Of a stretch of DNA of 61,997 nucleotides, positions 35,885-61,997 are shown piece by piece. A model generated the notes under the pieces. The model made no database searches. It was not told where the DNA came from and worked only from the letters and a program-made list of their open reading frames with translations. This stretch comes from a virus, in the IMG/VR virus record IMGVR_UViG_3300027848_000021, positions 1-61,997 of that record. One strand, 5' to 3'. The position numbers were made by a program, and so were the translations under genes. Position 1 is the first letter of the stretch; each line of letters begins with the position of its first letter.

Positions 35885-37942
35885 ATGGCATGGAATCAAT
35901 CGAGCAACAAATCGCTCAATAACGCGAGTGGCAAATCACTTGGCCCTGGCATGCCCGTCGCCAACAACCCGTCCTTTGTGGGCAAGCCCTACAGGGATAA
36001 TTGGGACATCGAACGAGCCTATAAAGAGGGCATGCAGAAGGTCACGTGGGTTAATAGGTGTGTTGACGCGATTGCCGGAAACCAGGCGCGACTTCCTGTC
36101 ATGCTACGAAAGGACAACTCCCCAGACGGTGAGATTGTTACCGGCAGGGAAGCTAAACGCTCAAATATTCTGGAGATTCTAAATACCAAGGCGAACATGG
36201 GGGAAAATTCTTTCATTTTTCGCTACAGACTGTCCGCACAACTGCTTCTTGGCACCCGTGGCGTTTTCATTGAGAAAATCCGCGGCAGGGACGGTGGGGT
36301 TATCGCGTTGAGCCTATTGCCGCCACAGCACACCGCTCCGATACCGCACCCAAAAACGTTTGTTTCGGGATATGAAGTCGCAATGCCCAATGGAGATAAA
36401 ATCATCCTGCCACCACGGGATGTCGTTTGGGTAAGGCGCCCACACCCACTCGACCCGTATCTATCCCTAACACCCCTTGAATCATGCGGAATTGCCATAG
36501 AAATCGAGAATTTGGCGAAAATCTACAACCGCAACTATCTTCTGAACGACGGAAGACCAGGCGGTTTGTTGGTTGTCCGTGGGGAAATGGAAGAGCCGGA
36601 TAAAGAGGAGTTGCGCAATAGATTCCGCGGCAATATCTCCAGAACCGGCCACACGACGGTCATTGCGTCTGATGATGGTGTTGATTACATAGACACGTCA
36701 GCATCCCCCCGTGACGCCGCGTATGTCCAAATGCGTCAATTAACAAAAGAGGAGATACTCGCATCTTTCGGCGTGCCGGAGTCGGTAATTGGAAACGCAA
36801 GCGGCCGTACGTTCTCGAACGCCGCGGAGGAAATACGGGTGTTCTGGATGGAGACAATGTTGCCCCACCTCGAACCGCTTGCTCGGGCACTTGACGAGCT
36901 AGACGATGAGAATTATATAGATTTCGATTTAACTGAAGTTCCAATTTTGATGCTCTACAAGCAAGAGAGAGAACGATATTTGCTCCAGGAGTTTCAAACC
37001 GGCCTGATTAGCAATAACGAATACAGGCTTGGTTCTGGCAGAAAAGAGACCGATGCCGATTTGGCGGATTCGCTGCTCATGAATCCAAACCTGATACCAA
37101 TTGCAAATACCAAAAAGAAAATGGACGTAGTTCCAACGGCGGAGATGGGCGGTGTACCACCAGGGGCGCCACCAGGAGCGCCACCAGGAGCGCCACCAGA
37201 AGCACCACCTGGATTGCCGCCAGAGGCACCAGTCGACCCGAATACCATGCAGGGCGCCCTTGCGGCCGAAGGAGCACCTCCTGCTGGCGATTTGGCTCAG
37301 GCGCTTCCAGGGGATGCAGCACCAGCGAATACCGCAGCGCCGATTCCAGCCGGTGCCACCAGCGCGCAGACGGGTGGAATAATGCACAAATCGGACACAT
37401 TTGCCAAAGAAACAACGGCAATTGGACGATGGGAAGAAATCTTGGCGCGGAGTCTGGAGCGCGTCGTCGAGCGTCAGCAGAGGGTCGTGTTAGAAAAAAT
37501 ATCGGGTGCAAAGTCTAAGAAATCCCTATTTGCAGGAACCCTCGACGCTGAATACATTTTGAACTCCGATTTATGGAATAGACAAATGGACGAGGACATT
37601 CGTCCGGTCATATCGGCAATCATTCAGGAGTCGATGAATCTGTCCGCGGAATCAACCGAAACCAAGACGGCAGAGGATGGCATCTCCACCAAGGCCCAAG
37701 AAGACATACGGGTACAAGTCGATTCACAAATGGACCGCATAAAGCAGTTAAACACAAGCAATCAATCGGCGATTTCCAATATGATGCTCAATTCATTTAA
37801 TATATTTGACTTGGAGGAGCGGGCGTCGGCTTTCAAGTCCTCGGTTAACGGACTATATGTAGGCATTTTGTCTCAGCAGCAGCAAGATGTAAGCGAAGAA
37901 GAGACGCGCAGGGCGTGGGCGTTCGGAAAAGGCAATTTGTAA
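35885..37942 (+). CDS. HK97-type portal protein
   Basis: A 685-residue portal protein, longer than the usual 400-500. Core signatures include V-N-R-C-V-D-A-I-A, L-L-G-T-R-G-V-F, L-L-P-P-Q-H-T, D-G-R-P-G-G-L-L-V-V-R, and G-V-P-E-S-V-I-G-N-A-S-G-R-T-F-S-N-A. After residue 420 comes a P-P-G-A repeat (37157-37227), then a helical domain that is not part of the normal portal fold; it may bind packaged proteins or protrude into the head. The start is next to the end of the small membrane protein. Confidence 0.85.
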   Translation: MAWNQSSNKSLNNASGKSLGPGMPVANNPSFVGKPYRDNWDIERAYKEGMQKVTWVNRCVDAIAGNQARLPVMLRKDNSPDGEIVTGREAKRSNILEILNTKANMGENSFIFRYRLSAQLLLGTRGVFIEKIRGRDGGVIALSLLPPQHTAPIPHPKTFVSGYEVAMPNGDKIILPPRDVVWVRRPHPLDPYLSLTPLESCGIAIEIENLAKIYNRNYLLNDGRPGGLLVVRGEMEEPDKEELRNRFRGNISRTGHTTVIASDDGVDYIDTSASPRDAAYVQMRQLTKEEILASFGVPESVIGNASGRTFSNAAEEIRVFWMETMLPHLEPLARALDELDDENYIDFDLTEVPILMLYKQERERYLLQEFQTGLISNNEYRLGSGRKETDADLADSLLMNPNLIPIANTKKKMDVVPTAEMGGVPPGAPPGAPPGAPPEAPPGLPPEAPVDPNTMQGALAAEGAPPAGDLAQALPGDAAPANTAAPIPAGATSAQTGGIMHKSDTFAKETTAIGRWEEILARSLERVVERQQRVVLEKISGAKSKKSLFAGTLDAEYILNSDLWNRQMDEDIRPVISAIIQESMNLSAESTETKTAEDGISTKAQEDIRVQVDSQMDRIKQLNTSNQSAISNMMLNSFNIFDLEERASAFKSSVNGLYVGILSQQQQDVSEEETRRAWAFGKGNL
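37157..37227 (+). repeat. 12-base Pro/Gly/Ala repeat in the portal gene
   Basis: Repeats of CCACCAGGAGCG and variants encode P-P-G-A and P-P-E-A units. They form a flexible linker between the portal core and its C-terminal domain. Confidence 0.7.
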
Positions 37943-37982: not shown

Positions 37983-38052
37983 AATAAACAGCAATACCTG
38001 CGCTGCGAACCGGTTCTCTCGTTTATTCTAGAAGATGGCGACGAGGAGAAAA

Positions 38053-41000
38053 ATGCCCGCTACAGACTTCCCAGACATACACTATAAATCCAACTCGGGT
38101 CCGATTAATTTCGATACCGCGAAGGGAATTGTTGAATGTTTCGTTGCCGGCATTGGCAACAAGGACTCTGTCGGGGACGTTTGCGTGTCGGGAGCGTTCA
38201 CAAAGAGCCTGCAACGTCGGAAACCTCGCGTGGTTTGGGGTCACGTCTGGAATGAACCAATTGGCAAAGTTTTAGAAATATATGAAGTCCCAGCGAATGA
38301 TGCGCGTTTGCCAGCAAAAATGCGAGTTGCTGGGGTCGGAGGGCTGTACGCAAAGGTTCAGTTTAATCTCGGTTCCGAGAGGGGTCGTGAAGCATTTGCA
38401 AACGTTGCCTTTTTCGGCGAGGAACAAGAATGGTCTATTGGTTACAAAACGCTACGCTCGCAACAGGACCCAGTGCTCCAGGCGAATATGTTGTACGAGG
38501 TCGAACTCTATGAAGTAAGCCCTGTTCTCCACGGCGCAAACCAGATGACCGCAACAATATCGGTCAAGGACGACCAGACTGCAATAGAAATTGGTCACGC
38601 AGATTGCCCCGATGGAGCCTGTGACCTTGCTAAAGACGAATCCAGCGCCCCAGTCGAGGAAAAACATATTCCGGTTCAGGACAACACGTTTGACGCTGTA
38701 GCAATTAAAATTGGGAACGAATTATCGGCTCGTAGTGGTTCGATTATTAACGTAATCTCGTTGGAAAAAGCAGCGGTCGTGTTTACCCGTATGGCCGCGA
38801 ACGGTGATGTCGTGACCTACAGGTGCGGCTATCACTTTGACGGTCTCACTTTTATGTTCGCTCGGCCAGAGCGTACTACGCCCGGGATAAATGTTCCAGC
38901 CGTTACGCCGGTAATACCAAGTGTCAGCCCTCAGCTACCGCCCGTGCCGGTAAGACCACAAATGCCCCTCGCCCCAGTAGTGGCGCCGGTCGTTGTTGTG
39001 GCGCCGGTGCAGGTAAACCGTGTCGCCCTGTCGGTGCCTACTGTTGTCAAGCCAGGGCCTATGGGCATGGAAACTGTTGTACTGCCGCAAATACGGTACG
39101 AGAACACCCCTAAGCCTATCGATATCGCGGCGGCTATCGAGCGGGTACGCAAACGTAATGGATATAAGTCGCTTTTTGATTTTGGCGAAGTAACGGAAAC
39201 GGACTTTTTGGATAGTGTTGTTACGGGCAATAATCCGACCAGCATCCCCTACATCATTCCCGTTGCCATAAAAGATGCATACGCCGTTAAATCCCTGGTA
39301 GACCCTATTTTGGATTATTACAGAATTGAAGCCAGAGTGGAACCAGAGGGCATTGTCCTTTCGTCTGGAGTGACCAAAGACTTTGCGGATGCGGTATCTC
39401 TCGCCACCAAGGGACTCGGCAGAACAATTGGACGCGCGCTCTCTGCTGTCCGTCCGAACATCGGGGCAGGGAGGGTGGGTAGTCCAAACTTGCGTGGAGA
39501 ACGCAAGCGTGGGCGTGGTTTCAACTTCGGAATGCCCGAGGGCGACACGAACCCAATGACGCGCGAAGACGGCAACAGAGACGGCACGGTATTCGACGGC
39601 ATTCCCGGTTGGGAACAGCCAGACCCGACTCCCGGCGGTGCGGGCTCAATCGATAATCGTGAAGCGTCCGCCGCGCAGGAAGCTATTGCCGCGACATCTG
39701 GGAAACCGGATTCTGGGGCAATCAAAAAAGATGAAAAAAAGAAGCCGAAACTTTCATCAACTACTGACCCCGAACGTAAGCCAAGGGGTAATAACCTGTC
39801 GCGTGAATTTGGTGACATGACAGAGGAGGAGCACTCCCTCTACGGTCGTTACGATGAAGGGGGACGCGAGAGAAGAGATGCCGCCACCGGAAGAACCGCG
39901 CGCGACGATAATGCTGCGGACAAAAAGCGTGGCCAGCGTGATTCTGCCGCCCGCAGTGCTCGATTGCGTCAAGCGGAAGCCGCGGGGGACAGGGGAGACA
40001 GGGACGACGATGAGGCCAGCAGAATCAAACTCTCGTCGGGAAAAACCGATAGACGACATGCTGACCGTAGTGCGGAGATGGAACGGACCTTCCCAAATTC
40101 CGAGGAAAATAAAAAACGTCTCGCCCATGATGCCACTGCGGACACGTGGAGAAAAGATGGTTTCGGCTGGACCGAAATCCCTAGATACTCGGGAGATAAA
40201 AACAGGAGTCCAGATTATTTGCGTGGCAGAGAAATCGGATTCAATCAAGGGCGTTTGATGTGGGATGGCACTGGCGGACACAGAACGCGTCCCGAGAAAT
40301 TTAACGAGAAACAAAAATCATCCATCCAGTACGCGGACTGGTACGAAAACCTACTCAATTCCGTCAGCAGGTTTGTTGACGCGCATAAGGGCGGAGATGA
40401 TGTTGATGAGTGGAACGGCGTAGAGGCTGGCTTCAAAGAGGTAGTAATAACCAACGCTCCAGATACGTCTACGTGGCCATCGGACAGAGTCAAACGATTG
40501 GGCGATTTGATGGACAGGTATGACCCTAGTCTTAGGGGCAAAAACCCTAAGTCAACAGGAAAACTGTCCAGCGCGCATAACGCCGCAGGATTTAATGCTG
40601 GTATGGAATTTATTGCCCGAATTGGTGCTGGTCGAGAATTTAATAGAGAAAATAAGAAAAAGAAAAAGAATACGGCCAGACGGGCTAATTATCCATCCAC
40701 GCAACCCAGATTATCTTCGGGCGCGGGCAAAGAGATTGACGCTCCAGAAGAAGAGGCAGACAGACCACCTTCGGGCAACATAGGGTCCGACTATCGCAGG
40801 TTCGACCTAGAAACAACCGATGGCGGACCGAACCTGCTTGACGGCATGCATGATGAAATTTCACGTAGTCCAAAACTCCGCAGTAAAATCATGGGCGAAA
40901 TCGCGAGCATGCTTGGCGCTGCTGGCTTAACTGAAAAAAATGGTTACGACACATCACGTGCGTTTGATGTCTTGACAGGTTCCGAGAAAGACTTCGAAGA

Positions 41001-43005
41001 CCACATCGACGCACTCTCTGACGCGCGAGCCGCACTGGGAAGTGGTTCCTACGGCATGTTGAAGGCCAGGCTGAAGGAGTACGAGAGTTCGGCTGAGCAC
41101 ATCAAGGCGCAAGACGCTGCTGACGGCAGACTGCTACGCCTGGAACAGAATGCTAAGGCAATCCGAGAACGCTTAACGGCCATAGACAGAGCCAAAACGC
41201 TTTCAGCCCAACGCGACGACGACGCGATGAACAGCGCCGACATCGGTCAGCTCGTACTTGGCAAAGAAGAAAACGCCCTATGGGACGCACGAAATGATTT
41301 GGCTAATAAATACAACGTCGATAAACCAGAGAAACTCTCGTCAGGGAAAGCCGACAAGGTTGCTGACACTCTTGAGAACCACGGCGATTGGGAAAAAACC
41401 GATGACGGGATAGAGATATACCCACAGGGCAAAGATGTCGCTTACCAAATAGGCAATGTGGGCAAGGGCAAATGGGCCGTTACGAGGCATTGGGATTTTG
41501 AGAGAAACGCTGGGCAGGACGCAAAGGAATACGAACACGACAAAATATTCGCAAGCGTTTCTGCTGCGAAAAAATGGGCTGATGCAGACTTCAGAAGAGG
41601 CGAGAATAGCGAAAAACCTTTGCCGGCCGCTAAACGGAAGAAAACAAGCAAGTCATCTTCCGGTAAGAAGAACTCCAAAATGATTAACGGAGTCAAGATT
41701 GATGTTTCGCCGGGGGCAGAGTTAGATGGCGCGGATTTAGATGGGGCAAACTTAAAGGGCGCGAACTTAAAGGGTGCGTACTTGCGCCGCACAGACATGG
41801 GCGGCGCAGACCTATCGGGTGCAAACTTGGTTGGCGCAGATATGACTGAGGCGAAGCTAGTTAATGCGAATTTGAGTGATGCAGACCTAAGCGATGCCGA
41901 CCTGGGCGGCGCGGACTTATATTTTGCAAACTTAGAGGGAGCAAACTTAAACGGCGCGAACCTGATAGGCGCAAAATTTACTCGTGCGAAATTAATTAAC
42001 GCCAATCTGACGGATACGCAAATGAATGGCGCTGACCTAGTTGATGCGGATTTGACCGGTGCGGACTTAGAGGGCGCAAACTTACGCAAAGCGAAACTGG
42101 GTGGTACGAACCTAACTGGCGCAAACTTAATTGGCGCAACAATGCCCGATAATACAAAGTGGACGCCAGACACCGACATGACAAAGTGGACGAAACCGGA
42201 CAGATTCTCTTCTGGCGGGACAAATATCAAGATGATTAACGGAGTTGAAGTCGATATTTCGCCGGGCGCGAACCTGGAGGCCGCGGACCTGACTGACGCG
42301 GACCTGACTGACGTGAACTTGGCTGACGCGAACTTGCGTTTTGCAAAACTGAATGGTGCAAAACTGAATGGGGCGAAATTGAATGATGCAGACTTGAGAC
42401 GCGCGAAATTGACTAAAGCGGACCTGACTAAAGCGGACCTGACTAAAGCGACCTTGGAAAACGCGAACTTGACTAGTGCGAACCTGACTAACGCGAACCT
42501 GACTGGCGCGACCTTGGAAAACGCGAACTTGGCTCGCGCGAACCTACGTAACGCGAACCTGACCGAAGCGTACCTGCCTAACGCGAACTTGGCTCGCGCG
42601 AACCTGACTGGTGCGAACTTAAGTGACGCGATTATGTATGACACGGACCTGAGGAGCGCGAACTTGACTGGCGCGGACTTAACTAACGCGAACTTGACTG
42701 GCGCGAACTTGGAAAACGCGGACTTGTCTAAGGCGGACTTGACTGGCGCGGACCTGTTTCGCACGAACCTTACTAAAGCGAACCTGACTGACGCGAACTT
42801 GGCTGGGGCGAACTTGGCTAAAGCGGACTTACAGGACGCGACTATGCCCGATGGGACAACATGGACGCCAGACACCGATTTAACACAGTGGACGGGAGCA
42901 AAAAAACTCTCGTCAGGGAAAACCCCAAAATTCAAAGACGACCCACTATCCCCATTCAAAGATTTACCCGAAGATTCAATAGTCACGCTTGAAGGCGACA
43001 AATAA
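38053..43005 (+). CDS. prohead protease fused to a modular polyprotein with pentapeptide repeats
   Basis: 1650 residues from an ATG with GAGGAG four bases upstream (an ATG at 38035 is also open). Residues 1-190 are an HK97-type prohead protease (S78/U35): G-H-V-W-N-E-P (His64), E-W-S-I-G-Y (Ser128), S-P-V-L-H-G-A-N. Next comes a Pro/Val-rich linker and several low-complexity, Arg/Lys/Asp-rich segments. The C-terminal third has two pentapeptide-repeat blocks, each beginning N-G-V-x-x-D-x-S-P-G-A and ending W-T-P-D-T-D. The motif [K/R]-[L/F]-S-S-G recurs at borders: 40030, 40711, 41335, 42205 and 42907, with an S-S-S-G at 41653. This suggests a protease that releases cargo parts. It ends in TAA, in frame with the next gene. 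Confidence 0.75.
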   Translation: MPATDFPDIHYKSNSGPINFDTAKGIVECFVAGIGNKDSVGDVCVSGAFTKSLQRRKPRVVWGHVWNEPIGKVLEIYEVPANDARLPAKMRVAGVGGLYAKVQFNLGSERGREAFANVAFFGEEQEWSIGYKTLRSQQDPVLQANMLYEVELYEVSPVLHGANQMTATISVKDDQTAIEIGHADCPDGACDLAKDESSAPVEEKHIPVQDNTFDAVAIKIGNELSARSGSIINVISLEKAAVVFTRMAANGDVVTYRCGYHFDGLTFMFARPERTTPGINVPAVTPVIPSVSPQLPPVPVRPQMPLAPVVAPVVVVAPVQVNRVALSVPTVVKPGPMGMETVVLPQIRYENTPKPIDIAAAIERVRKRNGYKSLFDFGEVTETDFLDSVVTGNNPTSIPYIIPVAIKDAYAVKSLVDPILDYYRIEARVEPEGIVLSSGVTKDFADAVSLATKGLGRTIGRALSAVRPNIGAGRVGSPNLRGERKRGRGFNFGMPEGDTNPMTREDGNRDGTVFDGIPGWEQPDPTPGGAGSIDNREASAAQEAIAATSGKPDSGAIKKDEKKKPKLSSTTDPERKPRGNNLSREFGDMTEEEHSLYGRYDEGGRERRDAATGRTARDDNAADKKRGQRDSAARSARLRQAEAAGDRGDRDDDEASRIKLSSGKTDRRHADRSAEMERTFPNSEENKKRLAHDATADTWRKDGFGWTEIPRYSGDKNRSPDYLRGREIGFNQGRLMWDGTGGHRTRPEKFNEKQKSSIQYADWYENLLNSVSRFVDAHKGGDDVDEWNGVEAGFKEVVITNAPDTSTWPSDRVKRLGDLMDRYDPSLRGKNPKSTGKLSSAHNAAGFNAGMEFIARIGAGREFNRENKKKKKNTARRANYPSTQPRLSSGAGKEIDAPEEEADRPPSGNIGSDYRRFDLETTDGGPNLLDGMHDEISRSPKLRSKIMGEIASMLGAAGLTEKNGYDTSRAFDVLTGSEKDFEDHIDALSDARAALGSGSYGMLKARLKEYESSAEHIKAQDAADGRLLRLEQNAKAIRERLTAIDRAKTLSAQRDDDAMNSADIGQLVLGKEENALWDARNDLANKYNVDKPEKLSSGKADKVADTLENHGDWEKTDDGIEIYPQGKDVAYQIGNVGKGKWAVTRHWDFERNAGQDAKEYEHDKIFASVSAAKKWADADFRRGENSEKPLPAAKRKKTSKSSSGKKNSKMINGVKIDVSPGAELDGADLDGANLKGANLKGAYLRRTDMGGADLSGANLVGADMTEAKLVNANLSDADLSDADLGGADLYFANLEGANLNGANLIGAKFTRAKLINANLTDTQMNGADLVDADLTGADLEGANLRKAKLGGTNLTGANLIGATMPDNTKWTPDTDMTKWTKPDRFSSGGTNIKMINGVEVDISPGANLEAADLTDADLTDVNLADANLRFAKLNGAKLNGAKLNDADLRRAKLTKADLTKADLTKATLENANLTSANLTNANLTGATLENANLARANLRNANLTEAYLPNANLARANLTGANLSDAIMYDTDLRSANLTGADLTNANLTGANLENADLSKADLTGADLFRTNLTKANLTDANLAGANLAKADLQDATMPDGTTWTPDTDLTQWTGAKKLSSGKTPKFKDDPLSPFKDLPEDSIVTLEGDK
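41695..42900 (+). repeat. two pentapeptide-repeat blocks (A-[D/N]-L-x-x)
   Basis: Tandem 15-base units encode A-[D/N]-L-x-x repeats. Block 1 covers about 41725-42145 and block 2 about 42274-42845, roughly 28 and 38 units. Each is flanked by the same start (N-G-V-[K/E]-x-D) and end (W-T-P-D-T-D) segments. The two blocks use clearly different codons, so they were expanded separately rather than copied recently. Pentapeptide repeat proteins form right-handed beta-helices that can mimic DNA. Confidence 0.85.
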
Positions 43006-43026
43006 AGAATCTACCCTGGTGACCGT

Positions 43027-46000
43027 TTGTCGTCAGGGTTCACGTACGGTGCTGAAACTGGCATCAAAACCAAAGACGAAATGTTTGAGTTCCTGAATGC
43101 GCAACTGATTGATGCCATCGAGAAGGCTGACCCAACATCATGGAAGATGCCATGGCGCGTTACCTCGATGCCCAACAACCCAACCACGAAAAAAACATAC
43201 ACCGGCACCAACTACATGGCGCTATCCATCATTGGGTCGGAGCGCGGTTACGCAAGTACACAGTGGGCTGGCTATGGACAATGGGAAAAAGTGGGCGGCC
43301 AGGTTCGCAAGGGCGCTAAGGGCGTACCAATTTTGGTACCGATTATGTTTAAGCCAAAGGATAAGGATGGTGCTGCCGACCCTGCATTGGGCGACAAAGT
43401 AAAGCGCGGCGGAATGGCGTGGAAGGTAATTCGGGTTTTCAACCGCGACGAGGTTGATGGTTTGCCTGATGACTATGGGGTGGTTGTAAAACTCGACGAA
43501 GGAACACGGGTCGAGAACCTAGAAAAGACACTCTCGGAAATAGCGCCAACGATTAATCACGGCGGCGCGAGGGCGTTCTATCGACCAAGCGACGACGCCA
43601 TAACTGTTCCCGCGTTTGCCGATTTCAAAACCGCCAGAGGGTACTACGGCACGGTTGCGCATGAATTGATGCACTGGACGGGTGGAGAAAAAAGATTAAA
43701 GCGCGCAAACATGAACCAATTCGGCAGTCCTGAGTACGCGTATGAGGAATTGATTGCGGAAATAGCGTCGTCAATGTTCCTTGCGGCACATGGGGTTGAA
43801 CCGGACATCCAGGATAACCACGCTCCATATTTGGCGAGTTGGCTGAAGGCGCTACGCAGTGACCCAACCGCGCTGCGACGCGCTATGAAGCAAGCTCAGG
43901 ACGCATTCAATTACGCAATGGGCTTGTCTCCGAGCATGACAAGGTTGTTTAAGTCAGAAGATGAGGGCGGATTAGAAGCAGATACCCCGGATGTTGCGGA
44001 AATAGTAACACCTGATTTGGGGTCCGGGGACAAACTTTCTTCAGGCGGCCGCCCGCGTAGAAGAATCGTCAGCCTAGAAGACCTGCCCGAATACAAATTT
44101 CCAACCGATAAATATGAAGCGAGTCCTCAACAGAAAACAATATCGAATGCTGTAGCGACTGGTGCGGACGTAGTTGTTAGGGCCCTGGCCGGAACGGGCA
44201 AGACTAGCACTCTCGGCGACATCGCGCGTCGCTTTCTGGGAGAAGAGCCTTCAACGAAGACAAACGACCCACCAACGAAAACGGGTGACCTGCCAGTAAA
44301 AATGGGCGCGACTGGCATGTTGACGCAGAAGCAGAAATATACGATAAAACCGGGCAGAATCGAAATCGAAAACGGCTTCCTTGTTAAGGACCGCATAAAA
44401 GAGGCCGGCGGGAAATGGGATGGCGCAAATAAGAAATGGTTCGTGCCGCTAAGTGATGATAGCGACGAACGGGAAGTCTTAAAGAAATTACAAAATCTGA
44501 CCAATCGTTTGGCGACGGGCGGACCATCCGCGGAAACGCGAATCATTTATCTTGCGTTCAATAAATCCGCAGAATTAAGCGCCAAGGGCGCTATGCCGAG
44601 CAATACCGAGGTTCGCACCGGCGACGCACTCGCTTGGGCGTTTGTAAGAAATGTAAACGAGAAGTTATTAGCGAAAAAAGAGAAGGGGATGAGAAACCTG
44701 AAGGGTATAGCGGGATACCTCGGCGTTAAGGGCATATTGATTGAAAGAAAAGGCGGCGGCGAGAAGAAAGAACTAACCCAAGAGGATATCGTGAGGGCGC
44801 TCAGTCACGCCGTCAAGCATTATTCCATCAGCGAGGACGATGAAATTTCGGCAAAGCATTTCGCCCCAATCCAACGGAAGGCATCAGGCAAGGTCGACGG
44901 CGTAAACTGGGATGAGTTTGAACTTCCTGAGGTGTTAGTCAAATTTGCCCAAAAGTACTGGAATGATTTGAATGACCCTGACGGAAAGATATATGCGGAC
45001 TTCACCCATTGGACGAAGATGTGGGCGCTTTCGCGGCCGGATTTCTCGGAAGAAATTCCGAACTCAAAAAATGGATTCGGTAGCGGCGTCGATATTGTAT
45101 TTTTCGATGAGGCCCAAGACATAAACCCCGTTATGGCCAGGGTCATACGCGAGCAGACAATTCAAAAAGTCTACGTTGGAGACTCGAATCAGGCCATCTA
45201 CGGGTTCCGAGGCGCAACCGATACGTTGTCGGAGGTGAAGGCAACCTACGATTTGCCACTTACGGAATCGTGGCGATTCAATCAGGCGATTGCTGATTTT
45301 GCTAATAAGTTTCTCGTAATTGCCAACGAAACGGAATTACGTGTTATTGGCAGAGGGAAGGGGGGCAAGATTGTTTATGATATGCAAGACGCCGACGTAA
45401 TTGAAGTCCGCACTAGGGGTGGAGCGCTTGATGCTATTCGGTCGGAATTGGCAAAAGGTCGCACGGTAGGCGTTTCTAAGAATTTCAAAACAAAACTCAC
45501 TACGTTTATCCTGCACGCCGAACACCTCGTACTGAAGAGGAGTGGCAAGCCAGAAAAGCAAAGCGACGACCTAGTCGGGTACGAGTCGTGGAAAGAGGTC
45601 TTGGATGCGGTCGAAAAGGGGGATGAGCCACAACTGGCAACGCTGGTAGCGATAGTGCTGGAACAGGGCGAGGGCGTAGATGGTATCAATAAACTAAAAG
45701 ACCTCCTCGGTAGAGTCAGGGAAATAGGGAGTGCCGGCCCTAGTGACGACCCGATAGACGTAGAAATCACTACGGCCCATACGTCGAAAGGCGGGGAGTG
45801 GCCCAAGGTCAAAATATGGAAAGATTTCTGGGGTCCGCGAAAAAATAAAGTGACCGGCGCAATAACCATGCCAACGCAAGAGGAATACCGCATTGCGTAT
45901 GTTGCGTTAACTCGACCCACATCAGAATTGGACCCTGGCAGTTTGAAGTGGATTCTAGAATACGTCCCAGATGGAGATGACAGGCTCTCATCGGGCAGGC

Positions 46001-47842: not shown

Positions 47843-47971
47843 ATGGGCAAAACTGATACTTCTTACGATAACTGTGTAGTAGGTTATACTTTAGGAAACA
47901 AGGTTTACGGTAATAGCGCTGGCTCTGGCGGCCAGTGTGTCAATTGTCTTTTAAGGAGCTCGGTCTTATGA
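47843..47971 (+). CDS. 42-residue cysteine-containing protein
   Basis: A short frame starts at ATG 47843, with AAGGA about nine bases upstream, and ends in a TGA that overlaps the next ATG (ATGA at 47968-47971). The product has N-C-V-V-G and Q-C-V-N-C near the end, Gly/Ser-rich between. The overlap suggests translational coupling. Unknown role. Confidence 0.5.
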   Translation: MGKTDTSYDNCVVGYTLGNKVYGNSAGSGGQCVNCLLRSSVL

Positions 47972-49542
47972 AGTTTGACGATAAAAGCATGGTCGGTATT
48001 GGTGCGGATGGCAACGTCATAACATGCGCTAAATTACTGAGTCCTGCCGACTGCGGCTTCGTCAATGGTGCTGCCGTTTGTGGAAAATGCGGCGCAGCGC
48101 CGGTACGTGTCAAAATAGCCCCAATGGAGAGCACCGAGGAAGACGATATGAAAGATAAAGCATACGAAACAGGGCACACAGAAACACCAGTTCCAGCAGC
48201 CAAAAAGAAACTCAAGCCACGAGAGCTTGTCATCCCCGATGCAGCGGAGCCAGAGGGCGAAGTATTAGACGAGGACATCGACGGCTCGGAAGAAGAATTG
48301 GACGAAGAGGGTAATCCTATTCTCAAAAAGACCGACGAAGAGGAATTGGACGAAGAGGGCAATCCCGTCGTCAAGGAAGCGGAAGAGGAATTGGACGAAG
48401 AGGGCAATCCCGTCGCCAAGGACGAGGAACTAGACATCGACGATGACGATGACGATGACGACGACGATGAGGAGGAGCTGGCCGAAAAGGGCTCAAACTG
48501 GAGAATCCCGCCAAAGAAGTCGTCTAAGAAAAAGAAAATTGCCGTAGATGAATACGGCGACCCAGTTGGGGAAGACATCGATGATGATGTCGAAGAGAAG
48601 TCCGATGAATCAGGCATGGACGTTTTCCGTCAACTCCGACTGGAATCATTAGGTCTGTCAAGTGACGAATTTGGTTCAGACGGTTTTATATGCGCCATTG
48701 AGCGCAAGTCACTTCTCGGTGGGGCGTCGGTTTGTGACGACTGCCCTGGTGGGTGCATGGCCGAAAAAGGAATGCCCAGCCTGCTCCATGTCGAGGGCCT
48801 GGCTGAGGATATGTTCGGTGGCACCGTTCTTGACTCCGGTTATTCCGCAGACGCCGACATGTTCGTGGTTGACGTACAAGTCAAAGACGGCAAGGCTGTC
48901 GAGATTTTCGTTGACGGTACATCCGGCGAAGTTATGGGTTGGCACAAGCTTGATAGCAATATCTTCGAGCAGAAATCCGCAATTGATGAGGTCCAGTTGA
49001 TTAGCTTCAATGAGGCCGCAGAAATCGCCGTCAAGTCAATTGATGGACATGTAGTTGCGGTCGAGCCAGACACGTTTGAGGGTCTCGATGCGTACGCGGT
49101 GGAAATCGATGCGTTTGACGGCAAGTCATACGACGTATTCGTTTCTCTCGACGGCGAAGTCCTCGGCTACGACAAGTACGAGCAAGATGAGGCCGAAGAG
49201 ATTGAAGCGGAAGCCGCAGAAATTGCTCTCAAGAGAGCTTTTAGTGATGAAATTCGCACCCAAATGGCGGCAGAGGGTTCCGCTATGGCGGATGGTTCAT
49301 TCCCAATTAAGTCACAAGAGGATTTGCGTAACGCGATTCAGTCTGTTAGTAGAGCGGAAGACAAGACCGCTGCCCGCAATCACATCATGAAGCGCGCAAC
49401 GGACCTCGATATGGTGAACCTAATTCCGGCTACATGGGTGGCTGGCGTGGAGGAGAAATCAGCACCAGACATCGATACTGATGGCGATTTCTTGAAACAA
49501 CTCGTTGAGTTCCAATTGCTAGAAATAGATAATAACTCGTAA
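47968..49542 (+). CDS. acidic protein with PepSY-like domains and a phage-typical C-terminus
   Basis: A 524-residue, very acidic protein. I chose the ATG at 47968 with AAGGAG nine bases upstream. The N-terminal part has C-A-K, D-C-G-F and C-G-K-C. Residues about 108-170 consist of E-E-L-D-E-E-G-N-P repeats and an Asp run. Two PepSY-like units follow, with D-G-T-S-G-E-V-M-G-W and S-L-D-G-E-V-L-G-Y. The end has F-P-I-K-S-Q-E-D-L-R-N-A-I and H-I-M-K-R-A, as in actinophage capsid-associated proteins (DUF6582-like). Possibly a scaffold, a cargo carrier or an inhibitor of the protease. Confidence 0.6.
   Translation: MKFDDKSMVGIGADGNVITCAKLLSPADCGFVNGAAVCGKCGAAPVRVKIAPMESTEEDDMKDKAYETGHTETPVPAAKKKLKPRELVIPDAAEPEGEVLDEDIDGSEEELDEEGNPILKKTDEEELDEEGNPVVKEAEEELDEEGNPVAKDEELDIDDDDDDDDDDEEELAEKGSNWRIPPKKSSKKKKIAVDEYGDPVGEDIDDDVEEKSDESGMDVFRQLRLESLGLSSDEFGSDGFICAIERKSLLGGASVCDDCPGGCMAEKGMPSLLHVEGLAEDMFGGTVLDSGYSADADMFVVDVQVKDGKAVEIFVDGTSGEVMGWHKLDSNIFEQKSAIDEVQLISFNEAAEIAVKSIDGHVVAVEPDTFEGLDAYAVEIDAFDGKSYDVFVSLDGEVLGYDKYEQDEAEEIEAEAAEIALKRAFSDEIRTQMAAEGSAMADGSFPIKSQEDLRNAIQSVSRAEDKTAARNHIMKRATDLDMVNLIPATWVAGVEEKSAPDIDTDGDFLKQLVEFQLLEIDNNS
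48291..48420 (+). repeat. acidic repeat (E-E-L-D-E-E-G-N-P)
   Basis: Three near-identical copies of an acidic unit (DNA GAATTGGACGAAGAGGG) lie 48 and 42 bases apart in frame, followed by a run of GAT/GAC Asp codons. Confidence 0.8.
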
Positions 49543-49563: not shown

Positions 49564-52500
49564 ATGAAGACGGGTGGGCCGGTCTATAAAACGCGGATAA
49601 TCGTATCGAACAGATTCGTCTCCCCGCTGGTCGGAAGAAAGTCGTTTAACGACTCTGCGATTAATTTCAAAAAAGCAGTGCTGCTATCGATGGATACGCC
49701 GCGCCTTGACGCTAACGTGTCGGCGAAAGCCGCTAATCTGGGCAGTTCGATTGGCGGCACGGGTAAATCTACGTCACCGGATACCGATAATAAGAAACGC
49801 TCGACAGACGGCGCACCTCCCGGGCTAATCGAACTACCGGGAGGCTATCGCTACCTCCCCAACGCCACGGCCGATGATGGAATGGTGCTGAATCTATTCC
49901 CATCCGCTTTCAGTAGGGAATCATATTCCAAAGAACCAAACTTTGGTTGGGTGAAAAAAGCCAAGTCGGTAACCATCGATGAGTACGAGGAATATCAAAA
50001 AACCGCTCCACGGATTCGGATGCGAAAATATAAAGTCAATTCGCGAACCAATGACATTATCCTTGAAACAGAGCAAGAACTTGACCCGCTGTACGTAAAT
50101 GCGCACCCAAGTCCAACCCGCGTTGATGCTGGGGATTTACCCCTGGAACAAAAATCGTTAGGGGACAATCTTCAAAAGCTAGTCCCCGGTGGGTCTCTCT
50201 TGCAGCGCGCTGTTGGGAGGCTGGGGATTATCAGAGATGAACTGAATAAATTACGCTGCCCGCCAGGAACGCCGGCAGCGAATCAGTTTACGGATGCCCT
50301 CGGCTCGAACTGCTTCGGTGTTTCAGCAGGCAAGATTGCCAACTACGCCATGGATATGGCGCAAAAATTCGAAAAAGAATTAACCCCGTTTAGGAACACG
50401 GCCAAGAACGTTAGTAATTTCCTGTTTGACGTAGACCAAGGACGCTATGGCGCGTTGTTTGCTCGAACGGTTTGGTATGACGCAAACGGGAACAAAATCA
50501 AGAATATTCGCAAGTGGCGAGATATCCCCCAAGAGGGCGATGGCGCGTGGTTCGTCGGCGGCATGGCTCGCGCACAGGAGCGCCTGGCGCAGCAGGACGG
50601 CAATCTTAAGAAGATTTACGACAGTCTTGGAGTCATTCGGACTCCTACTATGACTAAAAACGAAGACGTCGTTCAGGCTTTTGAGGAACTGAAGCGCCGC
50701 GGACTTTGGGTCGGTGCGTTGAATGACCGTTTCAGTGATGTCGAAGTCGACCGAATTATAAACATGAGATTAAGAAGCATTTCCGGATTCCACGGTCTGT
50801 CCAAAGAACGTCAAGACGCACTACGCGCGGCGGACACTAAGCGTTGGTACGACAATGAGCGGGCGATATTAGAAGCACTGCTGGAAGAGCATTCTCTGAA
50901 CCCGAGGCATTTTGCTCTAATCGAATCCATTAACTACGAAATGAAGGTTCCGGGGACAGACGGCTACGACGAAGCAAGTGCCGCACCAACAGTTTTTGGA
51001 CCTAATGGCTTGCAGAGTAAAATCAATATAGACCTAACAGCGATAATGCGAAATCAAGAGCAAGAAATACCCGGGCTAAAACCAGACGAACGCACGCGCA
51101 TTGACGTAGTTGGGGCGAGAACAAGCGCTGAAGCCGGCGCTCATCTCGCAGACTTTTTGACTAGCGTAAACGTGAACGCCAAACAGATGGCGGCAATGGT
51201 CGAGGCGCGCGCCTATGCGCGTCATATAGCAAAACACGAATTCGCTCACACCATACAGATTGCGGCATTCGGGGAGGCCATAAAAGCCCGTATTAACGCT
51301 AATGGATTTATTGAAGTAACAAATGCCAAGGGGAAAGTGTCGCAAGTTTCAGACATTACAAAACTCACATCTAGCAACATATTCTCGATTATCCAAGACG
51401 TCGGCGATGGTATCGACATGGAAAGCCTTCAAAACGCTCTGTCACGCCTTGACGTGGTGGCATTTTTGGCTGGCAAATATCCACGAGAGTACTACGACGA
51501 GAAGGGCAAGACGGAAGTTTGGGCGATGGAGGTTACCGCTGAATTGTGGAGCCTTAGGGACCTCGGTTTAATCTATGGCGACGATATCGATGCGGCTCTG
51601 GAATACATGGACTCAATCATGGACAGAAGACACGCAAGTGCTCGAATTCTGTCCGATTATGATGCCATCGAAGCAGATTCCGCGCGATATTTCAACATTC
51701 CAGAAGAAGGCACGGGGGGAATTGAAGACCTGGCCGCAAGAGAGGCCGCCGAAGCCAGACGCGAGCTCAAGGAACTAAAAAACACATATTCCACGATGAG
51801 TGAATCGCAGCTCATTGAGGAAATTTCGTTAGAGAAGGCCCGGGTCGACGCCCTTCGGATTAGTGGCGCGGATGAAACGTCCCCCGAACTAGAGAGACAC
51901 CAAAATCGCTTGAGGGCAGCAGAATCCGCGTGGCGCAAAAAATACGGAGTCGGCGGTGCTGGTGACAAAAAAAATCTAAATCGAAAAGTTGACCAACACA
52001 GAACGGACAGGGGTCTGCACTCACCTGAGCGCCTAGCGGAGGATAGCCGTAAGGCCAGAATGAGGGAAGTACGGCTGGCGTCAGAAGCAATGGACGTGGG
52101 AGAAATCACCCAAAAGCTCGCTGATTACGAAGTCAAATTAAGAGACGCGTCCCTTCCGGCGGACGAGCGTTCCGCATTATTGGAAGAAGTGAAATTATTT
52201 AAAACCGCATACAAAGCTAGATTAGAAGAGGGTGGGGATTCCCGTACGTGGGCTCAGCAACGACGTGAGTTGGAAAAGAATATTGATTTGATTCTTCGTC
52301 CCGAGAGACCGCTCAGGAAAGTGCACCGTATAGCGACAGACGTTGGCGCCCAAAGGTACAGCAATGAGCAAAGAGCCAAGCTTCTGCAAAAGGCAACCCC
52401 ACAACAACGTCATGCGATAGTTGAGCTTGGAGATGCAAGCCAATCCGCAATAGGTCTTTTGCTTGACCCAGAATTCCAACAAGACGCCATTGATGCAATC

Positions 52501-55500
52501 AATCGACGACACCGTCGACTACAGAAAATGGGTCTTGTCTCCGGCGCGGAGAGCGAGAACGTAAGTCGTCACGAAGGCTCGCTCGAAAAACAAATCGAAC
52601 ATATCCTAATTCCGGCCATGGAGCTCATTGACGAATCACGAATACCAGATAATCTGGAGGTCGAAGCGGTACTCCATCTAGATATTGACCCCGCAACTGG
52701 CGAAACAATAACGACAGGTAACATCGAGCATTCCGGATTACTGACCGCCAGACTCATCACTAAAAAATCCCCCGCAGACGGTGGGTCAAAGTTGGACGAA
52801 TCCGGTTCTGACATAACGAGGTTAGGGAAGAGACGACAGCGGGTAGTGATACAGGTTGCCGAAGGCGATAGGGGGATTTTTCAACACTGGACATTTGACG
52901 CAAAGTTCAAAGACGAAAACCAAAACCTCACACTTCCCCCCGGTAAATTAAAAATTATCGAGGTTAAACCAGATGGAACCATTATCGCCCAGATAGAAGA
53001 ACAGAAAAATGCGGCGGAAGTCATGGATGACCTCGTCAAAGATACTAGTCGGATTATGGACCCTGAGTCCGTTGGGGCCGGCGGCTCAAAACGCCTACAA
53101 CGACTAGCTGACGACTACGCCGTAATGCGGCGCAAGAATGGGTTGAGCACTCCGTCCAAAGATGACAACACGACGGCAGCAATAGCCGACAGAAACGTCA
53201 CCGCAACACGCGCGATTATCGAATCCGGCGGGAAATTTGGCGAACCGGTGTCGCAGGACTACATCGACGAACCCAGAATCATAGACGGTGTTATCTATAT
53301 AGATATGTCACCGTCGGGAGCTAAAAAACTTAGTAGTGGACGAAGCGCGCTCGGAGAACCCGATACCCGCGAAGGACGCACCACTTCGAGAAAGAAACGA
53401 CAGTCAGCAATAGTCGATACGCTCCGAGGGGAAATCAACGGAACTGGAACCGATGATTCTACGGATGAAGATTTGTGGTTGCGCACCGCAGACGATACGC
53501 GTGGGCCTATCCAAATAGACCCACGCGTCGAGATAATTTTACGGAGCAAGACGGTGGAAGAGATTACAAAGGCCACGGAAGACGCTGCCGTTGATATACA
53601 TGAGGGCTTCGACAGGCGCCCGCGGGTTCGCATGACCGAAGACGAATTAAATACTTTTGCTGACGTCGGTTTTGTAAAACACCACGAAGTCGAGGCTGAT
53701 TTCGGGTCAGATAGTTCGCGTCGGCTGGCTAGACGGAATGCGCAAAATGAATCCGGCGAGAGGGCCGAGAGCCTCGGCGCGCAGCCGACCCCTCCGAGAG
53801 ATTTCGATGCCACGGCCGCCAAAGCTTTCCAGGTCATTGAGGAAATGACAAAAGCCGGACACGGGCTTCACGACATGAACAGAAGGGAACTTAAAAGATT
53901 GGGGCTGAGGGTAAGCCGCACCAAATCGATACTTGTGTCAAAAACCAAAGGCCGGGTTTACGAAGCCGACACCGTAGAACAAGCTCTCGCGTTGCTGTCT
54001 CTCGGTTATGAGGTCAACGTCAAAAATGACGAGCAGATAGTAATGGTGGCCAACGCTCAAAACGAATTAAAAAAATTGATACAAGAGTCCGCATCTTTAG
54101 TCGCCGAACAAAAATCGAAATTAGCAGAGATAGACGTAGGCAGACTATATAAAGCCGGGACAAACATTTTTGCTCACGAGTCGCTCGGCATTGACCGCTC
54201 TCAAATGCCGCAGCTTGGCGGCGTGCTGACCGGCCGCGATTCCATTGCCATGAGGGCAATAACCAGCGGCATTATGCCTGGCGGATGGGCCTCCCGTTTT
54301 GAGAAAGGCACACCGGAGCTTGTGGCGTTTAATGCACTCGCAAAAAAATACAGAGAAGGCCAAGCCCTTACCGACGAAGAACTCAAACACCTAATCGATA
54401 ATACTAGGTGGGATAAAATAAACGTTTTTGGGGAAGCCGTATTTATAGATTTTCTGAATAGGGTCGTAGTGACGAACTCGCCAGCCGGTGATAGCAACGC
54501 CGTAGTGCCCAGACGACTAGACCCAGCGACCCTGCGGGCATCGCAACAGCAAATATTGGGCCCGAAAATCGACAAGATGGCCGAAGACATGCTAAAAAAT
54601 TATAGGACGGCGAGAGAAATATTCAAAAAAGACAACCCAAATCATACATTGCAGGAATTTGAAGACTGGCGGGAAAAATATTTCAACATCGACGAGCCAA
54701 CGAGTCAGCACGCTCCGATTTTGACCACAAATGACGGATACGCCCTCGATGGGCATCATAGATTATTTGCACTTGTGCTTGTTCAGGGCCTAGCTCAATC
54801 GGATGACGAAAAATTCCCGATTTTTGTTAATGAGGTCCAAACGAATATCATCGAAGGTCTGAATCTGGGCCGAGTGTATCAAAAGCACATCGGGGTAATC
54901 GACGGTTCCGTTAGTGGCGAGCGAGAAGCGGACCAGGCGTATGTTGGCGACGGAATGCCCGAACGCATAACCAAGGATGAGTTTGAGATAGAGCAGCAGA
55001 AGCTTGTCGATTCCGCAGCGGCGGAAGTGGAAAAACTGTATGCCGATGAGCACTTCATAAAGATAGACAGCGTAGGGTTAAAAAACCGTCCAGAATTGAT
55101 GTTGGATGCCACCGCCAGAAGGGACGCGGGGAGAACGCGACGAGAGACGGGCGAGGGAGCCCTTATGAGCGACAGAATACGAAGAACATCACTAAGAACA
55201 CCCGGCGGGGCGAACGCGATAGGCCAAATCCGTGGCGGCGGAGGCAGTGGAGCCGGCCGTGCGACATCCCCAAGAACACAGGGGCGCTCCTCTATAGCAT
55301 TGTCCGAAACAGGCCGAATGCCGGATACGGCAAGCAAAAAGAATACAAAATCCCTAGAAGGACAAACAGCCCCTACGCGCTCCGAAGGCATGGTCGGTAC
55401 TGGCGCTAGCGATAAGAGGCGCTTGTCATCTGGCGCTTACAAGAGCGAATACGAACACCGTATCGGGATACACGAAAGCACCCCTTCTGATTCACGGCCA

Positions 55501-56427
55501 GTTAATGGGTATTTGGTCCACAAATCACACATTGAAGAAAAAAAGCGTCGCGTCCTTGCGTCGGGTTCCGGAAACACGGGGCCAGATGCGATATTCGAAT
55601 TACAAGACAAGGACATAGTCGGTGATGGTTTGACGAGCCTCGGAGAAATTGAAGTTGTATTGAAGTCGGGGGTTTCCAATCGAACCGCATACGGTAGTGG
55701 CGAGTCCGTTCAAACGGCGCATCGACCCGTAATGATGAATTCACGGAACCGCGAAGATATCACTGACGCCCTAACCAATTTCGACGGCACGAATGGTAGA
55801 GAAAAAAGCATGGATGCCATGATTAATCTTTTGGGTGGGTCGATTGATAATAACTACTCGTCGGCCGGAGCGAGATTAGACGGGGACAGACGGATGCGGC
55901 CAGTTGGGAAACCCGACCCATCCGCCGACACACGTGACTACGACATGTTTGAAGCCAGTATTCTTGGCGGTTTCAATAAGGATGAGGTAGAGGGGATACA
56001 TTACCCATACTCTAAAATCCAAGGCTTGGCAGAGAATGAAAATATAGATGACGTTATGTCGGAGGCAACAATTACGGCCAAACTTTCAAAACTCGGTTTC
56101 ACGCCCGAGGAGATTTTACAGTACGGCGCTATGAGTGTCGGCAAACCGCTCGACAACGCCGGCAGCCAGAAGTTGCGCGAGTATCGAGCCGCGAAGAGAA
56201 TAAAGAGCCGTTACGAAAAAATGGGGATTGGGTATGTCAAGTTCGCCCACCCACAAGGTCTTAACATCGAGAACCCGCGAACGTACAGCAAGAAAGCCAC
56301 AGGCAGGGAGAACGTCGAAGACATACTTAAAGAGCAGATATTCGCCGATTTCGACGAATCAGCAAAAAAGTTCTTAAAGGAAATGCGAAAATCACCTAGC
56401 AATAATCTGATTGGACGCCCTCTATGA
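49564..56427 (+). CDS. giant zincin-metallopeptidase/ParB-like polyvalent protein
   Basis: A 2287-residue protein. Visible parts: a Cys motif C-P-P-G-T with F-T-D and C-F-G near residue 232; a zinc metallopeptidase site H-E-F-A-H (558-562); coiled coils around 715-790; K-L-S-S-G at 1255-1259; a ParB-like D-G-H-H-R motif (1729-1733, preceded by D-G-Y-A-L); a basic Arg/Gly-rich region; R-L-S-S-G at 1953-1957; and a last module of about 330 residues whose fold I cannot name. I-I-D-G-V-I-Y-I-D-M-S-P-S-G precedes the first motif, echoing the start of the pentapeptide blocks. Like its upstream neighbours it fits a packaged, protease-processed effector. Confidence 0.7.
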   Translation: MKTGGPVYKTRIIVSNRFVSPLVGRKSFNDSAINFKKAVLLSMDTPRLDANVSAKAANLGSSIGGTGKSTSPDTDNKKRSTDGAPPGLIELPGGYRYLPNATADDGMVLNLFPSAFSRESYSKEPNFGWVKKAKSVTIDEYEEYQKTAPRIRMRKYKVNSRTNDIILETEQELDPLYVNAHPSPTRVDAGDLPLEQKSLGDNLQKLVPGGSLLQRAVGRLGIIRDELNKLRCPPGTPAANQFTDALGSNCFGVSAGKIANYAMDMAQKFEKELTPFRNTAKNVSNFLFDVDQGRYGALFARTVWYDANGNKIKNIRKWRDIPQEGDGAWFVGGMARAQERLAQQDGNLKKIYDSLGVIRTPTMTKNEDVVQAFEELKRRGLWVGALNDRFSDVEVDRIINMRLRSISGFHGLSKERQDALRAADTKRWYDNERAILEALLEEHSLNPRHFALIESINYEMKVPGTDGYDEASAAPTVFGPNGLQSKINIDLTAIMRNQEQEIPGLKPDERTRIDVVGARTSAEAGAHLADFLTSVNVNAKQMAAMVEARAYARHIAKHEFAHTIQIAAFGEAIKARINANGFIEVTNAKGKVSQVSDITKLTSSNIFSIIQDVGDGIDMESLQNALSRLDVVAFLAGKYPREYYDEKGKTEVWAMEVTAELWSLRDLGLIYGDDIDAALEYMDSIMDRRHASARILSDYDAIEADSARYFNIPEEGTGGIEDLAAREAAEARRELKELKNTYSTMSESQLIEEISLEKARVDALRISGADETSPELERHQNRLRAAESAWRKKYGVGGAGDKKNLNRKVDQHRTDRGLHSPERLAEDSRKARMREVRLASEAMDVGEITQKLADYEVKLRDASLPADERSALLEEVKLFKTAYKARLEEGGDSRTWAQQRRELEKNIDLILRPERPLRKVHRIATDVGAQRYSNEQRAKLLQKATPQQRHAIVELGDASQSAIGLLLDPEFQQDAIDAINRRHRRLQKMGLVSGAESENVSRHEGSLEKQIEHILIPAMELIDESRIPDNLEVEAVLHLDIDPATGETITTGNIEHSGLLTARLITKKSPADGGSKLDESGSDITRLGKRRQRVVIQVAEGDRGIFQHWTFDAKFKDENQNLTLPPGKLKIIEVKPDGTIIAQIEEQKNAAEVMDDLVKDTSRIMDPESVGAGGSKRLQRLADDYAVMRRKNGLSTPSKDDNTTAAIADRNVTATRAIIESGGKFGEPVSQDYIDEPRIIDGVIYIDMSPSGAKKLSSGRSALGEPDTREGRTTSRKKRQSAIVDTLRGEINGTGTDDSTDEDLWLRTADDTRGPIQIDPRVEIILRSKTVEEITKATEDAAVDIHEGFDRRPRVRMTEDELNTFADVGFVKHHEVEADFGSDSSRRLARRNAQNESGERAESLGAQPTPPRDFDATAAKAFQVIEEMTKAGHGLHDMNRRELKRLGLRVSRTKSILVSKTKGRVYEADTVEQALALLSLGYEVNVKNDEQIVMVANAQNELKKLIQESASLVAEQKSKLAEIDVGRLYKAGTNIFAHESLGIDRSQMPQLGGVLTGRDSIAMRAITSGIMPGGWASRFEKGTPELVAFNALAKKYREGQALTDEELKHLIDNTRWDKINVFGEAVFIDFLNRVVVTNSPAGDSNAVVPRRLDPATLRASQQQILGPKIDKMAEDMLKNYRTAREIFKKDNPNHTLQEFEDWREKYFNIDEPTSQHAPILTTNDGYALDGHHRLFALVLVQGLAQSDDEKFPIFVNEVQTNIIEGLNLGRVYQKHIGVIDGSVSGEREADQAYVGDGMPERITKDEFEIEQQKLVDSAAAEVEKLYADEHFIKIDSVGLKNRPELMLDATARRDAGRTRRETGEGALMSDRIRRTSLRTPGGANAIGQIRGGGGSGAGRATSPRTQGRSSIALSETGRMPDTASKKNTKSLEGQTAPTRSEGMVGTGASDKRRLSSGAYKSEYEHRIGIHESTPSDSRPVNGYLVHKSHIEEKKRRVLASGSGNTGPDAIFELQDKDIVGDGLTSLGEIEVVLKSGVSNRTAYGSGESVQTAHRPVMMNSRNREDITDALTNFDGTNGREKSMDAMINLLGGSIDNNYSSAGARLDGDRRMRPVGKPDPSADTRDYDMFEASILGGFNKDEVEGIHYPYSKIQGLAENENIDDVMSEATITAKLSKLGFTPEEILQYGAMSVGKPLDNAGSQKLREYRAAKRIKSRYEKMGIGYVKFAHPQGLNIENPRTYSKKATGRENVEDILKEQIFADFDESAKKFLKEMRKSPSNNLIGRPL

Positions 56428-61075: not shown

Positions 61076-61997
61076 ATGTCGCAAGACAATGCAAGAGTTA
61101 CCGAGCTGCAATCAGCTCTCCGTGGCAAGATGGCCGACAATAAAGCCATTGCCGATTCATTCGTCGTAGAGAACGGCACCGTCGTTGTATCTACCGAGCA
61201 GAAGTCAGCGTTTGACAAGAACATGACTGACATCAAGGAAATCAAAAGCCTCATCGATGGCATGCAAACAATGGACAGTGTCGACGCGTGGGCATCAGCT
61301 CCAGCAGCGACAGTTGCCGGCGAGTTTGCGGCAGCATCAGCACAAGTCGCTCAGCTTTCGTCACGCGAAATTAAGACTGTTGGCGAACAGTTCCTGGATT
61401 CCCCGGAGTTCAAGTCACTCGCAAACGGCCGTAATGGCGCAAACATGGTTGCCGCATGGCAAGCAAATGCCTCGTTCCATGGCCTGAGCCAGAAGGACGT
61501 TTACACCGCATTGCCAACCGGCACCCCGGGCAGCTTTGGCACAATTCAGCGCGATGCGATGGTGACACCGCCGACACGCACGAAGCGTGTCCGTGACTTG
61601 TTCCCATCCCGCACCACGACAGCCGCGGTCATTGAGTACTTCCGTCAAGTCGGCTTTACTTCTCTCGGAGAAGCAACGACCGTCGGTGGTTCACGTAGTG
61701 CGGTACCGTCGAATGCCGCAGCGGCAGTCGCTCAGCGGACAGCCGATGACTCGGCCTTCGCCGCGAAACCAACATCTGGATTCCAGTTTGTTGGTGAGCA
61801 AGCAGCAGTTCGCACCCTCGCGCACTGGGAAGCTGCACACAGAAACGTTCTCGCCGATGAGCCGCAGTTGCGCTCAATCATCGACAACGAGCTCATGTAC
61901 GGTCTTCGTTTGCTCGAAGACAACCAAATTCTGAACGGCAACGGCTCGGGCGAAAACCTGCGCGGTGTCCTTCAGACACCAGGTATCCAGACCTACA
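61076..61997 (+). CDS. HK97-fold major capsid protein (5' part)
   Basis: At least 307 residues, cut by the window edge. A strong AGGAG ribosome site precedes the ATG. The first 100 residues are helical and charged like an HK97 delta (scaffold) domain, then the capsid core begins: R-D-A-M-V-T-P-P, L-F-P-S-R-T-T-T, V-I-E-Y-F-R-Q-V-G-F, H-W-E-A-A-H-R, L-L-E-D-N-Q-I-L-N-G-N-G-S-G-E-N-L-R-G-V. L-S-S-R lies at residues 94-97 (61355-61366), close to the expected cleavage point. This is the most abundant head protein. Confidence 0.9.
   Translation, partial: MSQDNARVTELQSALRGKMADNKAIADSFVVENGTVVVSTEQKSAFDKNMTDIKEIKSLIDGMQTMDSVDAWASAPAATVAGEFAAASAQVAQLSSREIKTVGEQFLDSPEFKSLANGRNGANMVAAWQANASFHGLSQKDVYTALPTGTPGSFGTIQRDAMVTPPTRTKRVRDLFPSRTTTAAVIEYFRQVGFTSLGEATTVGGSRSAVPSNAAAAVAQRTADDSAFAAKPTSGFQFVGEQAAVRTLAHWEAAHRNVLADEPQLRSIIDNELMYGLRLLEDNQILNGNGSGENLRGVLQTPGIQTY

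What the first reader, a model, noticed from the sequence alone, without database searches (positions are those of the whole stretch)
42997..43038. Two giant genes lie in one frame across a single TAA, with the motif at the junction
The first gene ends at TAA 43003-43005. The next open frame is in the same frame and, after seven codons, reads D-R-L-S-S-G. The only start there is TTG at 43027, whose codon is the Leu of the motif, with no Shine-Dalgarno. So the downstream gene is made by stop readthrough, or the stop is a recent mutation or an error. Readthrough would give a single polyprotein of about 3250 residues.
Basis: seen in the sequence. Interest (0 to 1): 0.78.

Follow-up and report, generated by a model that had tools for sequence, protein, structure and literature searches.

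The report
Phage polyprotein gene interrupted by stop
The two "giant genes" are one phage gene for a probably self-cutting polyprotein, which runs unbroken in dozens of related phages but carries a single stop codon in this record, most likely a recent mutation or sequence error rather than a programmed signal.

Summary
ORF 38035-43005 ends at TAA 43003; the frame reopens in phase (RIYPGDRLSSG...) and runs to 47820. TTG 43027 is not the only nearby start: an in-frame ATG lies at 43081, just before the ArdC domain, and the TTG has a weak GGTGA element. Related uncultivated phages settle what this is: one polyprotein gene, with an N-terminal S78 prohead protease, then shuffled cargo modules (pentapeptide repeats, ArdC plus metallopeptidase, UvrD helicase) separated by repeated [KR][LF]SSG motifs, ending just before the scaffold gene. 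Of 56 relatives with a closed protease-headed ORF of at least 1400 codons, 55 are unbroken. The nearest relative is colinear through the stop, with a sense codon there. The stop is therefore an unconserved nonsense interruption, most likely a recent mutation, minority variant or consensus error. Programmed readthrough is unlikely (UAA-A, no suppressor tRNA, unremarkable structure). The motif is probably the prohead-protease cleavage site: it changes in concert within each lineage and tracks the major capsid protein's predicted cleavage region (23/23 versus 4/14). The stop is ordinary; the protease-headed polyprotein is the interesting find. One relative (L047) is split at a dnaX-like -1 frameshift site.

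The parts
38035..43005 (+). First part of the polyprotein gene: S78 prohead protease (residues 32-176), linker modules, two duplicated pentapeptide-repeat modules, [KR][LF]SSG motifs; ends at the interrupting TAA
43003..43005 (+). Interrupting in-frame TAA; sense codon (Phe) at the colinear position in nearest relative L002
43006..47820 (+). In-frame continuation: PGDRLSSG linker, ArdC-N, MPTase-PolyVal metallopeptidase, UvrD-like helicase, C-terminal modules, conserved polyprotein C-terminus
43024..43038 (+). RLSSG motif (predicted prohead-protease site) before ArdC; homologous to PG[QDE][RK]LSSG in relatives and GFGSR in L002
43027..43029 (+). TTG inside the motif, possible reinitiation start with GGTGA upstream (-7.2 kcal/mol)
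43081..43083 (+). In-frame ATG at the start of the ArdC domain, weak SD
43013..43036 (+). Hairpin just after the stop, -14.3 kcal/mol, within the strongest 5% of windows in this gene; not remarkable
35885..37942 (+). Portal protein gene upstream of the polyprotein
47935..49542 (+). Probable scaffold gene (named by inference); C-terminus resembles by eye the C-terminal part of the protease fusion gp27 of Gordonia phage DalanDe; homologues follow the polyprotein in relatives
49564..56427 (+). 2287-aa late protein with two further LSSG motifs
61076..61996 (+). Major capsid protein (cut by the window end) with QLSSRE at the predicted delta-domain/mature boundary

Best explanation
The locus is a single late phage gene (38035-47820, about 3260 codons) for a protease-headed polyprotein, interrupted in this record by one nonsense codon, TAA 43003-43005. 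Shown by comparison: the gene is continuous in relatives, from the S78 protease to just before the scaffold gene, and sequence is colinear through the stop. Inferred: in intact phages the polyprotein enters the prohead, the protease cuts at the [KR][LF]SSG linkers (and at L[ST]SRE in the major capsid protein), and the released modules (pentapeptide proteins, ArdC anti-restriction, helicase) are ejected with the DNA. Inferred: the TAA is a recent mutation, a population variant or a consensus error. In a phage carrying it, the downstream modules would be lost or made weakly by reinitiation at TTG 43027 or ATG 43081.
For: Nearest relative L002 has a 3834-aa ORF with protease, the same FKDLP..IVTL.GD segment, gapless alignment through the stop position and the same ArdC domain. 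ArdC lies in the same ORF as the protease, after PG[QDE][RK]LSSG or a related motif, in the relatives examined except L047. Of 56 relatives with closed ORFs of at least 1400 codons, 55 run unbroken, with the scaffold gene about 50-300 nt downstream where the contig reaches it. The window's second half ends in the conserved C-terminus (SPGQWTRLMQIHDSTVKRR vs LSPTQWTSLLRLHDNSKSRR), and P0004 follows. pN/pS versus L002 is alike on both sides (0.19 and 0.20). Motif enrichment. Lineage-wide motif switches (LSSG, FASR, GMRSR, GLRS). Covariation with the capsid protein: 23/23 vs 4/14, Fisher p 2.9e-6. H, S, H of the protease invariant in 120 sequences.
Against: No read data and no second contig of this phage cover the TAA: L006 (99.66% identical) stops 2.5 kb short. 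I saw no other broken gene in the record (no systematic check), which argues mildly against general sequence error, and the downstream ORF is intact. Cleavage is not shown experimentally. L002's capsid protein does not carry its own FASR motif, so the cleavage inference is incomplete. The Fisher test ignores shared ancestry.
Confidence: 0.75

Rival explanations
1. Split but functional: the stop truncates the first product, and the second half is made by termination-reinitiation at TTG 43027 (or ATG 43081), giving a protein that starts almost exactly at the predicted cleavage site.
For: TTG lies about 20 nt after the stop with GGTGA (-7.2 kcal/mol), similar to many genes in this window; ATG 43081 starts the ArdC domain; the downstream ORF is intact.
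Against: No relative splits the gene here; the GGTGA is inside the predicted hairpin; an untethered second half would lack the N-terminal protease that presumably carries it into the head (inference).
Confidence: 0.15
2. Programmed stop-codon readthrough sets a gag-pol-like ratio of short and full-length polyprotein.
For: Same frame; conserved motif just after the stop; a hairpin about 8 nt downstream; one other relative, L047, looks built for -1 frameshifting.
Against: Stop not conserved in any relative; UAA followed by A is generally an efficient stop (own knowledge); no tRNA gene in the window; hairpin in the top 5% only, region z-score -0.72.
Confidence: 0.07
3. Two independent genes that happen to lie in one frame.
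For: Same frame by chance has probability one third.
Against: Homologous parts form one ORF in relatives; post-stop codons are colinear with coding sequence; the second half has the polyprotein's C-terminus.
Confidence: 0.03

Closest known systems
Polyvalent proteins of phages and conjugative elements (Iyer et al. 2017, PMC5512222)
   Same: Large multidomain phage proteins with ArdC-N, MPTase-PolyVal and helicase domains, proposed to be packaged and injected and released by embedded peptidases.
   Different: That paper reports the assemblin-like peptidase always at the C-terminus; here a prohead protease is N-terminal and, in large members, several to about 20 copies of a lineage-specific motif punctuate the modules.
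HK97-type S78 prohead proteases of actinophages (Gordonia phages GMA6 and DalanDe, Brevibacterium phage Cantare)
   Same: Same protease family (38-42% identity), next to capsid genes.
   Different: GMA6 and Cantare genes are 484 and 417 aa; DalanDe is 1633 aa with the protease in its C-terminal half. In Cantare and DalanDe no such motif repeats; GMA6's protease gene was not examined for motifs.
Prohead proteolysis of packaged ejection proteins in giant phages (SPN3US gp245; PMC10052503, PMC7411985, abstracts only)
   Same: A prohead protease cleaves head proteins, in a head that also holds ejected proteins.
   Different: There the substrates are separate gene products; here protease and many putative substrates are one polypeptide.
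dnaX-type -1 programmed frameshifting (own knowledge)
   Same: L047 has A_AAA_AAA, a 6-8 nt spacer and a stable stem-loop where its polyprotein changes frame.
   Different: Seen in one contig only; a homopolymer indel is not excluded. The window's own interruption is a nonsense codon.

Membership tests
S78 (HK97-type) prohead protease | Pfam Peptidase_S78 match above curated cut-off | tested here: met
   38.1 bits against cut-off 21
S78 (HK97-type) prohead protease | Conserved catalytic His and Ser | tested here: met
   H of WGH, S of EWSIGY and H of LHGAN invariant in 120 distinct sequences; that these are the catalytic residues is from general knowledge
Polyvalent proteins | Several unrelated conflict-related domains in one phage polypeptide (ArdC-N, MPTase-PolyVal, helicase) | tested here: met
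   in the window these three all lie after the TAA
Polyvalent proteins | Packaged in the virion and injected | not testable with these tools
   Late head-gene position only
Self-cleaving polyprotein | Protease and substrates in one uninterrupted ORF | tested here: met
   Met in relatives; in the window itself only up to the TAA
Self-cleaving polyprotein | Cleavage at the repeated motif | tested here: inconclusive
   Concerted motif change and capsid covariation; no biochemistry
Programmed stop-codon readthrough | Stop conserved among relatives | tested here: not met
Programmed stop-codon readthrough | Leaky stop context or stimulatory structure | tested here: inconclusive
   UAA-A is not a known leaky context; the hairpin is only in the top 5% of windows; no reporter test possible

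The most novel reading that the evidence does not exclude
Some of these phages regulate a protease-headed polyprotein by translational recoding, as retroviruses do for gag-pol: readthrough or reinitiation at the TAA in the window and -1 frameshifting at A_AAA_AAA in L047, setting the ratio of N-terminal to full-length packaged cargo.
Probability: 0.1. Interest if true: 0.85.

Novelty: new variant of a known kind. Interest (0 to 1): 0.55.

Why it matters
The stop codon is probably incidental, but resolving it exposes a widespread architecture in uncultivated phages: a prohead protease at the head of a polyprotein of up to about 4800 residues whose modules are separated by motifs that evolve in concert and track the capsid protein. 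If cleavage at the motif is confirmed, a tailed phage would pack a modular set of injected proteins as one self-processing polyprotein, and the motif would mark the boundaries of many unannotated, possibly injected proteins.

Tried and rejected
Same-phage contig over the stop: none with an exact pattern holding NNN at the stop or by ArdC peptides; L006 is the same species but ends at 40516. Stop reassignment: TAA, TAG and TGA all end predicted genes in this window. Suppressor tRNA: no tRNA gene found in the window; the record may be incomplete. Recombination junction at the stop: rejected, alignment with L002 is gapless across it. DNA-level match to cultured phages: none. Literature for phage polyproteins headed by a prohead protease: nothing found in the held open-access library, which is incomplete. 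GTDB scan: only two contigs with ordinary 425-431-codon protease ORFs. Close relatives of L047 to test its frameshift: only the same contig came back. A first dN/dS run used wrong coordinates and was discarded, redone.

Full report
What is there. The window is a tailed-phage record from IMG/VR with portal, tail sheath, terminase and capsid genes. ORF 38035-43005 starts with an S78 prohead protease and ends at TAA 43003. The same frame then stays open to 47820 and encodes ArdC-N, an MPTase-PolyVal metallopeptidase and a UvrD-like helicase. [LF]SSG occurs 6 and 7 times in the two halves against about 0.06 expected each.

One gene, not two. The nearest relative, L002, has a single 3834-aa ORF covering protease and ArdC. 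Codons align without gaps through the stop: window K-stop-RIYPGDRLSSG, L002 E-F-TISGSDGFGSR, both followed by FTYG.ETGIKTKDEMFE. In the more distant relatives examined, ArdC sits in the protease ORF after PG[QDE][RK]LSSG or a related motif; L047 is the exception. A survey of 189 distinct protease loci found 90 closed ORFs, 56 of them at least 1400 codons. Fifty-five are unbroken, and the scaffold gene follows within about 50-300 nt unless the contig ends first. The exception is L047, broken by a frame change. The window's second half ends with the family's conserved C-terminus and is followed by P0004, a homologue of the gene that follows in relatives. The window is the only case of a nonsense interruption.

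What the stop is. No relative shares it. UAA-A is generally an efficient stop (own knowledge), no tRNA gene is present in the window, and the downstream hairpin (-14.3 kcal/mol) is in the strongest 5% of windows but the region folds little better than shuffles (z -0.72). Constraint on the two sides is alike (pN/pS 0.19 and 0.20), which fits a recent event, though the comparison is too distant to date it. A same-species contig, L006, differs by 14 substitutions and one 12-nt (in-frame length) gap but ends before the site. I therefore rank recent mutation, variant or consensus error first, reinitiation second and programmed readthrough third.

What the motif is. Within each phage lineage the repeated motif is uniform but differs between lineages: LSSG or FSSG in most, FASR/FGSR in L002, GMRSR in L057/L059/L065/L081/L083/L084, and more weakly GLRS in L062/L071/L072/L076. 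Modules between motifs change order between phages, and the window's pentapeptide module is duplicated together with its motif. The major capsid protein carries [QHS]L[ST]S[RHS]E just before its predicted mature start in 23 of 23 LSSG-type phages and 4 of 14 others (p 2.9e-6, not corrected for ancestry). The mature start itself is predicted from the general pattern of HK97-type capsid proteins, not measured. L002's capsid protein lacks both LSSRE and FASR. This supports, but does not prove, that the motif is the prohead-protease cleavage site.

Comparison with known systems. The domains are those of polyvalent proteins (PMC5512222), but there the assemblin-like peptidase is described as C-terminal. 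Cultured relatives of the protease have shorter genes (GMA6 484 aa, Cantare 417 aa), or in DalanDe a 1633-aa gene with the protease in its C-terminal half; Cantare and DalanDe show no repeated motif, and GMA6's protease gene was not examined for one. I found no paper describing a protease-headed phage polyprotein in the held library.

Limits. No reads, no proteomics, no experiment. Sequence survey counts are by distinct protease sequence and are not phylogenetically independent. The name 'scaffold' for the gene after the polyprotein is an inference from position, acidic composition and a similarity to the DalanDe protease fusion noted by eye.

Noticed in passing
L047:17400-17500 (IMGVR_UViG_3300010885_034363): Polyprotein breaks right after GLSSG and continues in the -1 frame; A_AAA_AAA, a short spacer and a stem-loop (z -3.38) with upstream AGGA look like a dnaX-type frameshift signal, or a homopolymer indel.
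   Followed up: partly
window 33286-35619 (-): Terminase large subunit with a LAGLIDADG-like insertion, probably an intein.
   Followed up: no
window 15004-19401 (-): 1465-aa protein on the opposite strand also carries RFSSG, RLSSG and LGSG motifs and a weak peptidase M15 match.
   Followed up: no
window 49564-56427 (+): 2287-aa late protein with no Pfam or PHROG match and two LSSG motifs; parts are conserved in relatives, upstream of the capsid gene in several.
   Followed up: partly
window 25628-26761 (-): Phosphoadenosine phosphosulfate reductase-like auxiliary gene.
   Followed up: no
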